From contig CADATR010000041.1 of assembly GCA_902790885.1 (NCBI GenBank), positions 1-12,134 on the forward strand: DNA of 12,134 nt. The letters are read 5' to 3'. The number at the start of each line of letters is the position of its first letter. Positions within the stretch are counted from its first letter, which is position 1. Made by a program: the position numbers and the translations under genes. The notes below the pieces were generated by a model. That model was not told the DNA's origin. It worked only from the letters and a program-made list of their open reading frames with translations, and made no database searches. Origin of the DNA: an uncultured Eubacteriales bacterium (lineage in GTDB: Bacteria; Bacillota_A; Clostridia; Peptostreptococcales; Anaerovoracaceae). Positions 9,526 to 12,134 of this stretch are shown piece after piece.

Positions 9526-10473
9526 TCACCTGGCATCATCTCTCGTTCTTTGACGTTCCCGATGCCTGCCGTAGTATTCCATAGCAGCGGCTATATAGTC
9601 CTCTCGCTTGGATAACGGCAGATCCGGCGGGAAGAGCCTGCTGATCTTGTCCCCTCTCAACACGATCCTCTCCTTCTGGTTTGGTTTCTCTTCAAGCATT
9701 ATGGCTTCGATTGCTTCCCTTGTGAGTTTGCCTTCCTCAGACATACGCCTCATCCGAATAGCCTGGGAGTATGATGGCGTGCACTCCTCGAGTTCCATCT
9801 GCTGCCAGATCTCTCCTTGCTTGAGCTTGGGGATATATGAGAGTTCGACAGCAGGCCTCATGGCGATCTGCCCGTCATCTACCATGTCCAGGATCTCTGG
9901 AATAAGTTCGGTGAGGCGGATATATCTTCTGATTTGTTCCCTGCTTTCACCAGTCTCATCCGCCAGTATTGTTCTTGATTTACCAGAAAGGGGCTCCACT
10001 GGTGCCCCATTTCTCTCTGGTCTTCTTCCAGGCAACCGTTTCATCGCCTCCAGCCTCATCTTGTATGCAAATGCCTTTTCACTTGGAAGTATTTTGGTCC
10101 GCTGGAAATTGCTCTCGACCATAAATACTACGGCTTCATCTCTGCTCATCTCGACTACTTCACATCTGAGTGTATCGAGTCCCGCTATCTGAGATGCTCG
10201 CATTCGCCTGTGTCCTGAAAGGAGCTCATATCTTCCGTCTTCCTTTTTTCGTACCGTAGCAGGAGTAAGAACTCCGTTAGTACGGATAGACTCAGCAAGG
10301 TTCATCATGTCCTCGTCATCCTGCACCTTGAAAGGATGGTCAGGAAACTTATCTATATCGAGGATCGGGATATCATATATTCTTTTCAGTTTTGCGTCGT
10401 CTCTTTCCTCCTGAGATGAGAACAGATCATCTAGCGATGGCAGCCTCATCTCTACGCTTTTCTCTTTCGCCAA
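9526..10473 (-). CDS. parB: ParB-family partition protein
   Basis: 315 aa. Residues about 33-120 are the ParB/Spo0J N-terminal domain with the CTP/DNA-binding motif GHRRMRAS (87-94), preceded by SIRTNGVLTPATVR. VESNFQRTKILPSEKAFAYK (about 119-138) is the next conserved box. The central part (GKSRTILADETGESREQIRRYIRL, then GQIAMRPAVELSYI) is the helix-turn-helix region that reads the centromere. The start is TTG at 10473, 9 bp after AGGAGG; the ATG between them belongs to the parA frame. It overlaps the parA end by 47 bp. With ParA it should segregate or stabilise the element. No sequence like the chromosomal parS site was seen nearby, so its site is probably element-specific. Confidence 0.9.
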   Translation of the reverse strand: MAKEKSVEMRLPSLDDLFSSQEERDDAKLKRIYDIPILDIDKFPDHPFKVQDDEDMMNLAESIRTNGVLTPATVRKKEDGRYELLSGHRRMRASQIAGLDTLRCEVVEMSRDEAVVFMVESNFQRTKILPSEKAFAYKMRLEAMKRLPGRRPERNGAPVEPLSGKSRTILADETGESREQIRRYIRLTELIPEILDMVDDGQIAMRPAVELSYIPKLKQGEIWQQMELEECTPSYSQAIRMRRMSEEGKLTREAIEAIMLEEKPNQKERIVLRGDKISRLFPPDLPLSKREDYIAAAMEYYGRHRERQRTRDDAR

Positions 10474-11245
10474 GTCTCATCACCTCCTTTGTCAGCGCCT
10501 CATAAGCCTTTGCAGGTTTCGAATCACGATCATACGCATATATGCTCTGCCCGGCTTTTGAAGCCTCTGCTGCTTTGACCGCGACCGGGATCTGCGTATC
10601 GAATATCCTTATCTGCATCCCGTACTTTGTCCTGAGAGTATCTATCACCTCTTTAGCTAGATTTGTACGGTTATCTACCAATGGCATGACAATGCCGTTT
10701 ATTTGCAGTTTGCCGTTAGTATGGTTCCTGACCATATCGATGCTCCTGATCAGCTGTGTCATGCCTTTAGCAGGAAGATATTGGGCTTGTACGGGTATTA
10801 TTACGCTGTCTGCAGCCGTCAGGGCATTTATCGTTATCATGCCAAGAGATGGCATACAATCGATGAGGATATAGTCGTAATCTTTTTCCACGTCCCTCAG
10901 GATGTTCGAGAGTATCTTTTCCCGGCTCATCGCGTTCACAAGCTGTGTCTCCATAGATGAAAGATCCAGATTGGATGGGATCAGGTCTACTCCCTCCGGA
11001 TGATGGATGATCGTATCCCGAATTTCAGGCTTATTCTCCTGTGTTGCCAGATACATAAGTCTGCCGAGCGACTTCTCTAGAGCATCTCCGTTCCATCCGA
11101 GCGATGCTGTAAGGTCGCTCTGGGGGTCTGCATCCACAAGCAAAACTTTTTTGCCCTGCCTGGCTAGACCGACTCCGAGATTCAGCGTAGTGGTCGTCTT
11201 TCCAACGCCGCCTTTCTGATTACATACAGCTATAGTCTTTGCCAC
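10427..11245 (-). CDS. parA: ParA/Soj-type partition ATPase
   Basis: 272 aa. The deviant Walker A box KGGVGKTT is at 11-18, the A' motif VDADPQSD at 37-44 and Walker B LIDCMPSLG at 127-135. The protein begins right at the Walker fold with no N-terminal DNA-binding domain, so it is of the short Soj type. It binds ATP, coats DNA non-specifically and moves ParB-bound DNA. The start is GTG at 11245, overlapping the stop of the 58-aa gene by one base (TAGTG), a sign of coupled translation. Its C-terminal end (LGEREKRRDEAAIAR) is encoded in the overlap with parB. The gene sits between two small accessory genes and parB in a maintenance operon. Confidence 0.93.
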   Translation of the reverse strand: MAKTIAVCNQKGGVGKTTTTLNLGVGLARQGKKVLLVDADPQSDLTASLGWNGDALEKSLGRLMYLATQENKPEIRDTIIHHPEGVDLIPSNLDLSSMETQLVNAMSREKILSNILRDVEKDYDYILIDCMPSLGMITINALTAADSVIIPVQAQYLPAKGMTQLIRSIDMVRNHTNGKLQINGIVMPLVDNRTNLAKEVIDTLRTKYGMQIRIFDTQIPVAVKAAEASKAGQSIYAYDRDSKPAKAYEALTKEVMRLGEREKRRDEAAIAR

Positions 11246-11421
11246 TACTCATCACCGTCCAGTCTTCGTATGATCCCTTCGGCCATATCGCTCAGAATGA
11301 GTGCGTTCATCGTCATGCGATTCAGTTCTTCCGCTATCTGCATCAGTTCCTCGCGGATCTCAGGTTCCTGCTCCGTTCTCTCTGCCATCTTTACTTTGAT
11401 TCTCTTGATAATTCTGATCAT
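11245..11421 (-). CDS. 58-aa helical protein preceding parA
   Basis: MIRIIKRIKVKMAERTEQ begins with a basic segment, and the rest (EIREELMQIAEELNRMTMNALIL... IIRRLDGDE) looks like one or two amphipathic helices. The frame is open upstream to 11508, but GGGGAGGAAACAAT directly before the ATG at 11421 decides the start. A 5-bp GC hairpin (11436-11450) ends 6 bp upstream of this site and could affect its access. The stop overlaps the parA GTG. No family is recognised; tight coupling to parA suggests a role in partition or its control. Confidence 0.68.
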   Translation of the reverse strand: MIRIIKRIKVKMAERTEQEPEIREELMQIAEELNRMTMNALILSDMAEGIIRRLDGDE

Positions 11422-11466
11422 ATTGTTTCCTCCCCGCCGGCTCCTCCGGCCTTTCTCAAATAAATA

Positions 11467-11490
11467 ATCCTGCCCGTTAGTGAGCAGGAT
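11467..11490 (-). terminator. Weak terminator or attenuator inside the par operon
   Basis: ATCCTGC (11467-11473) pairs with GCAGGAT (11484-11490) over 7 bp with a 10-nt loop. On the minus strand TTATTTATTTG follows. It lies between the 48-aa and 58-aa genes, so it would lower expression of parAB relative to the first gene. The stem is short. Confidence 0.45.
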
Positions 11491-11516
11491 ATGTACGGAA
11501 GGATCCATTTGAAAGA

Positions 11517-11663
11517 CTATGCCAGGAGCTTGATAAGCAGATCATCAACGGCATCTGTATAACGGCCTTCTTCTATGAGAGCGTTTCTAAGTTCATTGAG
11601 TGCATATACAAGGACTCTGATCTCATCGTGAGTCACTGACAGCTTTATCTTGTTCCCGAACAT
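11517..11663 (-). CDS. 48-aa conserved-looking small protein, first gene of the par operon
   Basis: The sequence begins MFGNKIKLSVTHDEIRVLVY and ends DAVDDLLIKLLA. It is predicted to be two helices (THDEIRVLVYALNELRNALIEEG and TDAVDDLLIKLL) joined by GRY. AAAAAGGAGGAAATCACC before ATG is the best ribosome binding site in the window. Small proteins of this look occur in clostridial integrative elements as I recall, without an assigned function. It is followed by a hairpin and the 58-aa gene. Confidence 0.72.
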   Translation of the reverse strand: MFGNKIKLSVTHDEIRVLVYALNELRNALIEEGRYTDAVDDLLIKLLA

Positions 11664-11716: not shown

Positions 11717-11757
11717 TTATGCAAAATCTCTTTCATATTTGAAGGCATTTGCAGATA

Positions 11758-11873
11758 GGAGACGCTTTGGGTACCACGGGTTTTGCGGGAAAAGGCCCTA
11801 ATTTCGAGGAGACGGGCTATTCAAGGTGTTTCAAGGTGTCCGGTGATCATTTGGGAGACGAATGGGAGACGGG
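11758..11873 (+). repeat. GGAGACG repeats, including an 11-bp tandem pair
   Basis: GGAGACG occurs at 11758, 11808, 11854 and 11865. The last two are inside a tandem 11-bp pair, TGGGAGACGAA (11852-11862) and TGGGAGACGGG (11863-11873). A related GGAGAC lies on the other strand at 11945-11950 and another GGAGACGGG follows parB at 9478. Four copies of one 7-mer within 115 bp is well above chance. Confidence 0.7.
11820..11839 (+). repeat. Perfect tandem 10-bp repeat
   Basis: TTCAAGGTGT occurs twice back to back (11820-11829, 11830-11839), one helical turn apart, which suits side-by-side protein binding on one DNA face. Confidence 0.75.
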
Positions 11874-11932
11874 TATAAGGGGGTTTGCGTACCATGAAAA
11901 ATATCGTACTCATCTCCTCAAAGACCGCTCTT

Positions 11933-11956
11933 ATCCCCTAATTTGTCTCCTAATTT
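11933..11956 (-). repeat. Tandem 12-bp repeat
   Basis: On the minus strand AAATTAGGAGAC (11945-11956) is followed at once by AAATTAGGGGAT (11933-11944), 10 of 12 bases alike. It contains the GGAGAC core in inverted orientation to the main array. Confidence 0.65.
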
Positions 11957-11974
11957 TGGACTTTGAGCGACCTC

Positions 11975-11993
11975 CGGGTACCCGCGTGTACAC
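11975..11993. repeat. Two adjacent palindromes
   Basis: CGGGTACCCG (11975-11984) and GTGTACAC (11986-11993) are perfect palindromes one base apart, both centred on GTAC. GTACC also occurs in two similar 13-mers, TTTGGGTACCACG (11766) and TTTGCGTACCATG (11884). Confidence 0.6.
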
Positions 11994-12057: not shown

Positions 12058-12084
12058 AGCCCTGAGATTCTGTCTCTCAGGGCT
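12058..12084 (-). terminator. Terminator of the tRNA-Ser gene
   Basis: AGCCCTGAGA (12058-12067) and TCTCAGGGCT (12075-12084) form a perfect 10-bp stem with a 7-nt loop, 6 bp past the tRNA end. On the minus strand it is followed by CTTTCTTTG. Confidence 0.8.
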
Positions 12085-12090
12085 ACCCTG

Positions 12091-12134
12091 TGGCGGAGAG
12101 CATGGGACTCGAACCCACGAGGCTGTTACACCCT
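12091..12134 (-). tRNA. tRNA-Ser, 3' part (cut by the window edge)
   Basis: Read on the minus strand, the sequence ends GCTCTCC-G-CCA. The T arm is GTGGG-TTCGAGT-CCCAT, and part of a long variable arm (AGGGTGTAACAGCCTC) precedes it. A long variable arm with discriminator G and a CTCTCC acceptor strand points to serine rather than leucine, which has A. The anticodon lies outside the window. CCA is encoded, as usual in Bacillota. The 3' end of a tRNA is a common integration site. Confidence 0.87.

What the first reader, a model, noticed from the sequence alone, without database searches (positions are those of the whole stretch)
11758..11993. Dense repeat array between tRNA-Ser and the par operon: candidate new centromere, origin or att-arm region
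Within about 240 bp there are four GGAGACG copies, a perfect 10-bp tandem repeat, an 11-bp tandem pair, a 12-bp inverted-orientation tandem pair, two GTAC palindromes and a TTTGSGTACCAYG pair, none of them coding. Unit lengths of 10-12 bp fit binding of a protein along one DNA face. Position next to parAB favours a centromere; position next to a tRNA 3' end favours recombinase arm sites.
Basis: partly seen in the sequence, partly recalled or inferred. Interest (0 to 1): 0.75.

Follow-up and report, generated by a model that had tools for sequence, protein, structure and literature searches.

The report
Attachment arms, with centromere inside parB
The repeat cluster beside the tRNA gene is most likely where a mobile element's integrase grips DNA, while the element's likely centromere is a palindrome hidden inside its own parB gene that evolves together with the protein that reads it.

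Summary
The repeats are real: 40 pairs of identical 7-mers against 11.8±4.3 in shuffles. They lie between the 3' end of a tRNA-Ser and the par operon of an integrative conjugative element (ICE).

In three related ICEs whose array and both ends I located, the element-specific repeat of the par-side array recurs between the integrase gene and the far attachment site. The window's own far end and integrase were not found. Best reading: recombinase arm sites, not a centromere.

Following the centromere idea led elsewhere. At one fixed place inside parB, just before the helix-turn-helix codons, sits a palindrome: 81 of 85 parB genes have their best palindrome there. Arms differ between elements but mostly stay self-complementary (87.6% of cells paired against 64.0% shuffled). 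They co-vary with recognition residues, at two positions almost one residue to one base, independently of overall ParB distance. Site and HTH look exchanged as a ~100-bp block. The window's copy is 9990-10008.

A parS inside parB has precedents (B. subtilis, SCP1). Fixed position, hypervariability and readable code appeared in no paper I found. Binding is inferred, not shown.

The parts
12091..12134 (-). 3' part of a tRNA-Ser gene (cut by the window end); the attachment target
   Evidence: aligned with tRNA-Ser(GGA) of L004 and with L199 and L200
12091..12113 (-). probable att core (TTCGAGTCCCATGCTCTCCGCCA)
   Evidence: by homology: L194 joins foreign DNA to an L004-like left end at TTCGAGTCCCATGTCCTCCGCCA
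12058..12084 (-). terminator-like hairpin after the tRNA
   Evidence: 10-bp perfect inverted repeat, 7-nt loop; conserved in relatives
11756..11993 (.). repeat array: proposed arm-type region of the ICE attachment site
   Evidence: by analogy
11758..11764 (+). GGAGACG copy 1
11808..11814 (+). GGAGACG copy 2
11854..11860 (+). GGAGACG copy 3
11865..11871 (+). GGAGACG copy 4, 11 bp from copy 3
11931..11954 (-). 12-bp pair, the same motif class in the other orientation (AAATTAGGAGAC / AAATTAGGGGAT)
   Evidence: corresponding pairs in L199 and L200 keep the spacing with altered letters
11975..11993 (.). two GTAC palindromes in about 10-bp register (CGGGTACCCG, GTGTACAC), part of a second candidate arm motif
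   Evidence: GGGTACAA-type tandems occur at right ends of other islands at tRNA-Ser
11517..11663 (-). conserved small ORF, 48 aa, first gene after the array; function unknown
   Evidence: relatives in 22 of 148 genomes of one family
11245..11508 (-). ORF of 87 aa, no Pfam match
10427..11245 (-). parA
   Evidence: Pfam AAA_31, ParA
9526..10473 (-). parB
   Evidence: Pfam ParB_N, HTH_ParB; fold matches ParB/Noc/KorB
9990..10008 (-). candidate parS inside parB: GGGGCACCAGTGGAGCCCC, 19 bp, one mismatched pair
   Evidence: family evidence
9910..9981 (-). codons of ParB residues 165-188 (HTH) with the covarying positions K165, R167, R178, E179, R182

Best explanation
The array is the arm-type region (P-arm) of the attachment site of an ICE integrated at the 3' end of a tRNA-Ser. 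A tyrosine integrase encoded at the far end of the element would hold the short repeats with its N-terminal domain while cutting at the core in the tRNA. The array is not the centromere. The element's ParB most likely nucleates on a palindrome inside its own gene (window 9990-10008), written in the codons of a poorly structured linker just before the HTH. Site and HTH form one block whose specificity has diversified between elements. Shown: the repeats, their recurrence at both ends in three relatives, the position-fixed palindrome, its two-sided changes, its covariation with HTH residues. Inferred: protein binding, function as centromere, block exchange, and that the window's own integrase uses these repeats.
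For: Array: element-specific repeats at the par side recur between the integrase stop and attR: G012 TTTACGACA 5 left, 2 right, 0 elsewhere in 58 kb; Monoglobus TGCTAAT 6 left, 2 right, 3 elsewhere in 59.6 kb; G013 TGCTAAC 6 left, 1 right, 6 elsewhere in 80 kb (right-interval Poisson p 0.00015 for Monoglobus, 0.021 for G013, 0.00045 for the 7-mer TTACGAC in G012; for the four motifs of 7-8 letters so tested, none of 419 to 1679 letter-permuted motifs reaches the left count). Par-side geometry is kept in four tRNA-Arg elements (spacings 10-12, 21-22, 21, 32-33; some sites with one mismatch) while TGCTAAT becomes TGCTAAC. The G012 integrase has the Tn916-type DNA-binding domain PF02920. In 349 family genomes the window's array DNA matched 2, both par-bearing, while 165 of 349 hold the tRNA-Ser end pattern. 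Centromere: 81 of 85 genes; mean site score 9.27 against 3.93 for synonymous shuffles; 12 of 12 pairs with two-sided changes; covariation 0.507 against 0.129, slid copies at most 0.147; partial Mantel r 0.48, highest of 999 permutations 0.126.
Against: The window's integrase and far end were not found, so its own array is assigned by analogy. The window array holds two or three motif classes; which is the integrase's is open. 47 of 63 loci show no significant exact 7-mer array at the place tested; in G295 the array motif AAGGGCCA occurs only at the left. The G013 and Monoglobus integrases matched no arm-domain family, and G013 has only one exact right-hand copy. The window's own parB palindrome is among the weaker ones (2 of 40 synonymous shuffles reach it), and G at base 7 departs from the T usual with K165. 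No binding data.
Confidence: 0.72

Rival explanations
1. The array is the ParB-binding centromere of the element, as its place next to parAB suggests.
For: Position beside parAB; repeat units near one helical turn apart.
Against: The main unit is not palindromic, unlike sites of HTH-type ParB. L003 and L004 share the array but differ in HTH residues and parB palindrome. In three relatives the array motif also occurs at the integrase end. A better site exists inside parB.
Confidence: 0.08
2. Part of the array (perhaps the GGAGAC class or the 10-bp TTCAAGGTGT tandem) binds a recombination directionality factor or another small protein, possibly the conserved 48-aa ORF, with the integrase using only the GTAC class.
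For: Two or three motif classes in the window array; the small ORF directly follows the array in many relatives; right ends of other islands at the same tRNA-Ser core carry GGGTACAA-type tandems.
Against: At least two of those islands (G007, G088) have another integrase class beside their left end, so their right ends need not apply. Three members of the small-ORF family, not the window's own copy, matched no NCBIfam family; Pfam was not tried.
Confidence: 0.3
3. The array is an origin of replication or of transfer.
For: Repeats in a non-coding stretch of a mobile element.
Against: No replication initiator or relaxase family among the ten window proteins scanned; in Monoglobus the relaxase genes lie about 20 kb away; repeats recur at the integrase end in three relatives.
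Confidence: 0.04
4. The parB palindrome is an mRNA hairpin or a ParB operator controlling the gene, not a centromere.
For: Two-sided changes are also what an RNA helix would give.
Against: The symmetry runs up to a single central base (CCA-N-TGG), where an RNA hairpin would have its loop and gain nothing from symmetry; covariation with HTH positions points to duplex DNA recognition. Operator and centromere roles do not exclude each other.
Confidence: 0.12

Closest known systems
Arm-type sites of tyrosine-recombinase ICEs (ICEMlSymR7A attP with five P/arm motifs in 283 bp, PMC11963761 passages; Tn916 and CTnDOT recalled)
   Same: several short repeats within a few hundred bases of the core; repeats at both ends in three relatives; Tn916-type DNA-binding domain in the G012 integrase
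   Different: the window array shows more than one repeat class and sits on the par side; its integrase is unknown and binding untested
B. subtilis parS-359 inside parB (PMC4442127, one passage)
   Same: a ParB site inside the parB gene
   Different: there a member of a set of similar sites (recalled); here the site is element-specific and hypervariable, at one fixed place beside the HTH codons
SCP1 ParB1 and ParB2 with parS inside their genes (PMC13245405, passages)
   Same: plasmid HTH-ParB with 13-bp and 19-bp inverted repeats, cognate sites inside the gene, strict specificity
   Different: three identical sites around each operon there; here one copy was found in 83 of 85 loci (19-mer, up to 3 mismatches), with covariation across a whole family
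ParB/Noc specificity switch (PMC7383237, passages)
   Same: residues aligned to Q162 and R173 contact parS there and covary with the site here
   Different: two natural sites and four residues there; here 76 distinct 31-mers with their HTHs, strongest at positions aligned to 160, 162 and 174

Membership tests
arm region of a tyrosine-recombinase attachment site | short repeats within a few hundred bases of an att core in a tRNA 3' end | tested here: met
   core defined in the relatives L194/L004
arm region of a tyrosine-recombinase attachment site | same repeats at the integrase end of the same element | tested here: inconclusive
   met in 3 relatives; the window's far end is not held, and none of 19 duplicated tRNA-Ser att copies read showed a GGAGAC tandem before it
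arm region of a tyrosine-recombinase attachment site | bound by the integrase arm domain | not testable with these tools
   needs footprinting; a DNA-binding domain PF02920 was matched in 1 of 3 integrases scanned
array as ParABS centromere | palindromic site matching ParB specificity | tested here: not met
   array nearly the same in L003 and L004, HTH and parB palindrome different; GGAGACG is not palindromic
HTH-ParB protein | ParB_N plus HTH_ParB domains and ParB fold | tested here: met
parS (intragenic palindrome) | palindrome under selection as DNA, near parAB | tested here: met
   (family level; the window's own copy is weak)
parS (intragenic palindrome) | co-varies with ParB recognition residues | tested here: met
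parS (intragenic palindrome) | bound by ParB; supports segregation | not testable with these tools
   needs binding and stability assays
canonical parS or Noc site | TGTTTCACGTGAAACA or ATTTCCCGGGAAAT-like sequence (recalled) | tested here: not met
   none in the window at up to 4 and 3 mismatches; none in 86 par regions at up to 2 and 1

The most novel reading that the evidence does not exclude
A whole family of ICE ParB proteins carries its own centromere in its gene, in the linker codons beside the HTH codons. This block of about 100 bp, site plus reader, is exchanged as a unit, so elements change segregation specificity in one recombination step without losing the match. The natural collection spells out an almost one-residue-to-one-base recognition code: residue aligned to 174 against base 4 (E-A, D-G, N/T/S-C, A/P-T) and residue aligned to 162 against base 6 (R-G, D-T, more loosely N-A).
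Probability: 0.75. Interest if true: 0.85.

Novelty: new variant of a known kind. Interest (0 to 1): 0.72.

Why it matters
The array itself is ordinary ICE anatomy. The parB palindrome matters more. In the work I read, ParB specificity was dissected on the ParB/Noc pair; here a sequence database already holds dozens of matched reader and site pairs at the same gene position, so the code and its evolutionary paths become directly testable. It would also let one predict which coexisting ICEs or plasmids share a centromere, and could explain how related elements live together in one genome (G001 and G003 hold 5 and 7 parB matches, some of them two pieces of one gene).

Tried and rejected
ParA as a viral-contig query gave no relatives. 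A GGAGACG-pair pattern in 349 family genomes hit 61 genomes, with the reversed control giving hits of the same order (not totalled), so it was dropped. A cluster of TGCTAAT-like sites in G008 at S63183 lies among chromosomal-looking genes (one reads like GMP synthase, a recalled label), with no integrase, and was judged chance; G008's right end was not found. G006 has both att copies, but its left stretch was only read by eye and not scored. G003 has three copies of a terminator-like stretch and no clear end. G081, a 19-kb island at tRNA-Ser, shares only a short CATACAG by eye. G295's array motif is at the left only. Canonical parS and Noc sites are absent. Of 19 duplicated tRNA-Ser att copies, 14 by my eye follow a GTACAA-type tandem and none a GGAGAC tandem. 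A first ParB model from 22 sequences was poor (pLDDT 54.2) and was replaced by one from 53 (79.5). blastn of the array against plasmids found nothing; phages were searched only with the longer par stretch.

Rows dropped and choices made: one search left out L012 and L058 (too little DNA) and every locus without the small ORF; one search left out L193, and part of its 11 significant rows (L180, L181) rest on A-runs; one search used 85 of 86 parB loci; one search found the HTH anchor in 81 of 85 (not L017, L038, L072, L082), reduced to 74 distinct; one search used 75 of 76 distinct 31-mers (L001 left out because its orientation differed). The six residues of the Mantel test (-24, -23, -22, -12, -11, -8) were set after looking at the table, by an index slip: three of them (-23, -12, -8) are nearly uninformative and the best position (-10) was not among them; the per-position scan of the same call covers all 34. 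The five residues of the partner test were taken from that scan. Positions -34 to about -25 are encoded by or next to the palindrome, so their correlation is partly trivial. The permutations do not correct for relatedness; one search does so only through overall distance. The 29 and 15 pairs share loci and are not independent.

Full report
What is there. The window is the par-side end of an integrative conjugative element. On the minus strand from the tRNA inwards: the 3' part of a tRNA-Ser with a terminator hairpin, the repeat array, a 48-aa ORF, an 87-aa ORF, parA, parB, then a 1388-aa protein (labelled by analogy with the annotated SpaA pilin-related protein at the same place in Monoglobus), an AAA_14/DUF4143 protein, RadC and PC4-like proteins. 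The only two ParB hits with a source name among the 120 listed are Mogibacterium MAGs. An annotated relative in Monoglobus pectinilyticus shows the rest of such an ICE: MobC, relaxase, VirD4 (CD1115 family), VirB4 (CD1110 family) and, at the far end, a site-specific integrase.

The repeats are real. The 361-base stretch holds 40 pairs of identical 7-mers against 11.8±4.3, 0 of 100 shuffles reaching it.

The array goes with the element, not with the tRNA. Of 349 genomes of one family, 165 hold the tRNA-Ser end pattern but only 2 match the array DNA, and both carry the small ORF and parA after it. That search scored two candidates per genome and missed a further relative, G075:C40, found later, so 2 is a lower bound. 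In these relatives spacings are kept while letters change: the 12-bp pair AAATTAGGAGAC/AAATTAGGGGAT of the window stands against AAAGTGGAGACC/AAAGTGGGGCTG in L199 and GAAGTGGGTCT/GAAAGTGGGTCT in L200 (read; alignment).

Both-end test. In relatives, a complete tRNA or tmRNA lies upstream of the par operon on the same strand in 14 of 47 loci scanned (8 of 29, 6 of 18): Ser, Gly, Arg or tmRNA. Some par-side stretches hold a different, element-specific repeat (16 of 63 with z above 3, the window included; 11 of 39 in a second set that overlaps the first). In three elements whose array and both ends I could place, the same repeat lies between integrase and far att: G012 (att in the 3' end of a gene that reads like lysS, a recalled label), TTTACGACA 5 left, 2 right, none elsewhere in 58 kb; Monoglobus (tRNA-Arg), TGCTAAT 6 left, 2 right, 3 elsewhere in 59.6 kb; G013 (tRNA-Arg), TGCTAAC 6 left, 1 right, 6 elsewhere in 80 kb. 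In four tRNA-Arg elements (Monoglobus, G008, G011, G013) the par-side spacing is nearly the same while TGCTAAT changes to TGCTAAC, some sites with one mismatch; right ends were found for two of the four. The right-hand pair of Monoglobus is 41 bp apart; in G013 the exact copy has a one-mismatch partner 40 bp away in the same relative orientation. The Monoglobus and G013 integrases are 78% identical, each 26% identical to that of G012. PF02920, the Tn916-type DNA-binding domain, was matched only in G012's. Against: 47 of 63 loci show no such array by this measure, and G295's motif is at the left only. For the window the other end is missing. It also has GTAC sites in about 10-bp register, resembling GGGTACAA-type tandems at right ends of other islands at the same tRNA core. 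Which class the integrase uses is open.

Why not the centromere. L003 and L004 have nearly the same array but different ParB recognition residues (REQIR against KDQIR) and different parB palindromes.

Where the centromere probably is. Looking for palindromes shared by par regions showed one at a fixed place inside parB, nucleotide 459-474 in most genes. In 81 of 85 genes it is the best palindrome of the whole gene; its mean score is 9.27 against 3.93 after shuffling synonymous codons; in 68 of 85 none of 40 shuffles reaches it. On 75 distinct 31-mers aligned without gaps, 87.6% of cells pair against 64.0% shuffled, all 12 pairs show changes on both sides, and covariation is 0.507 against 0.129 shuffled and at most 0.147 when slid. 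The centre is a single base. More distant ParBs have it too: of the 14 loci L088-L101, ten (L088-L091, L093-L098; 37-44% identical) have their best palindrome there, nine of them clearly just before the HTH (in L090 the next residues differ), L092 has it in a frameshifted gene, and L099-L101 do not show it. Two of 85 loci have a second copy.

Site distance is unrelated to overall ParB distance (r 0.02) but related to HTH residues (partial r 0.48; highest of 999 permutations 0.126; 74 distinct loci). The highest single positions in the HTH are -24, -22, -11, -10 and -7 from the end of ...RYIRLT (0.44, 0.48, 0.33, 0.49, 0.30), window residues 165, 167, 178, 179, 182. Lining up G-E-S-R with G170-K171-S172-R173 of Caulobacter ParB (supported from the G onwards by the ungapped alignment to Myxococcus ParB) makes these 160, 162, 173, 174, 177; Q162 and R173 are named as parS contacts in PMC7383237 (passages). 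Counts in 74 loci: residue -10 against base 4: E-A 18 of 20, N-C 16 of 16, T-C 13 of 13, D-G 11 of 11, S-C 6 of 6, A/P-T 3 of 3, R mixed (3 C, 2 A). Residue -22 against base 6: R-G 20 of 20, D-T 16 of 19, S-T 6 of 6, G-T 3 of 3, N-A 8 of 13, V and A mixed. Residue -24 against base 7: R-G 34 of 36, T-T 11 of 13, K-T 8 of 10. Residues -7 and -11 show weaker, less clear pairings. For 49 loci with a partner of under 70% backbone identity sharing at least 4 of 5 residues, half-site mismatch is 0.10 against 0.57 for all distant loci; 17 of 49 match in all five bases.

Block exchange. In 29 parB pairs with about 93% backbone identity but different sites, identity falls to 48-64% from the site centre to 80 bases downstream (72-80% in the 40 bases before it) and recovers on both sides; 15 pairs with the same site stay at 86-98%. 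This looks like exchange of site plus HTH as one block; the mechanism was not tested.

The window's copy. GGGGCACCAGTGGAGCCCC, 9990-10008, has one mismatched pair and is weak alone (2 of 40 shuffles reach it). Both halves have G at base 6 with R167, and one half has A at base 4 with E179, as the code expects; G at base 7 with K165 does not fit. Its codons (the 31-mer spans 154-164) fall in the low-confidence stretch 151-163 just before helix 165-174 (mean pLDDT 79.5). The model's closest solved folds are ParB, Noc and KorB.

Known and new. A parS inside parB is known: B. subtilis parS-359 (PMC4442127, one passage) and the SCP1 systems (PMC13245405, passages). My literature searches (listings only, apart from the passages named) showed no paper on a position-fixed, hypervariable parS in ICE parB genes or on this code; the library lacks most subscription journals. 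ICE arm sites are known (PMC8138268 and PMC11963761, passages).

Verdict. Array: ordinary ICE attachment arms, by analogy. Off to the side: a strongly supported, not yet proven, intragenic centromere that co-evolves with its reader.

Noticed in passing
G002:C44, G070:C113, G064:C25, G066:C12, G088:C34 and others (L194, L221-L230, L237-L245): A ~75-bp right-end signature with a GGGTACAA tandem matches in 27 of 349 genomes of one family (four of them only by 21-22 bp). In the ten loci read it precedes a tRNA-Ser 3' fragment, usually after unrelated genes; att copies can be about 1 kb apart, like serial accretion of small islands.
   Followed up: partly
window 11517-11663 and relatives: A conserved 47-59 aa ORF follows the array in many ICEs of this kind (22 of 148 genomes of one family); three family members, not the window's own, had no NCBIfam match. 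Candidate excision factor or array-binding protein.
   Followed up: partly
L086: Five copies (one with a one-letter change) of the palindrome TGGGCTCCATTGGAGCCCA downstream of parB, four of them spaced 86-87 bp, different from the parB palindrome of the same locus.
   Followed up: no
L017, L018, L020: ParB variants with extra residues before the site, so the palindrome sits near nucleotide 612-618 instead of 471.
   Followed up: no
L013 / G005:C21: Two parB genes in tandem, about 55% and 70% identical to the window's.
   Followed up: no
L198 (Monoglobus ICE), 32782-35969: The annotated ICE carries predicted tet(O/32/O) and tet(40) genes; described only.
   Followed up: no
G006:C27 (S coordinates 6807, 48856-50831): An island at a tmRNA with two tyrosine integrases just before its far att copy, followed by a stretch that repeats the start of the island, as if a second left end stood in tandem.
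   Followed up: partly
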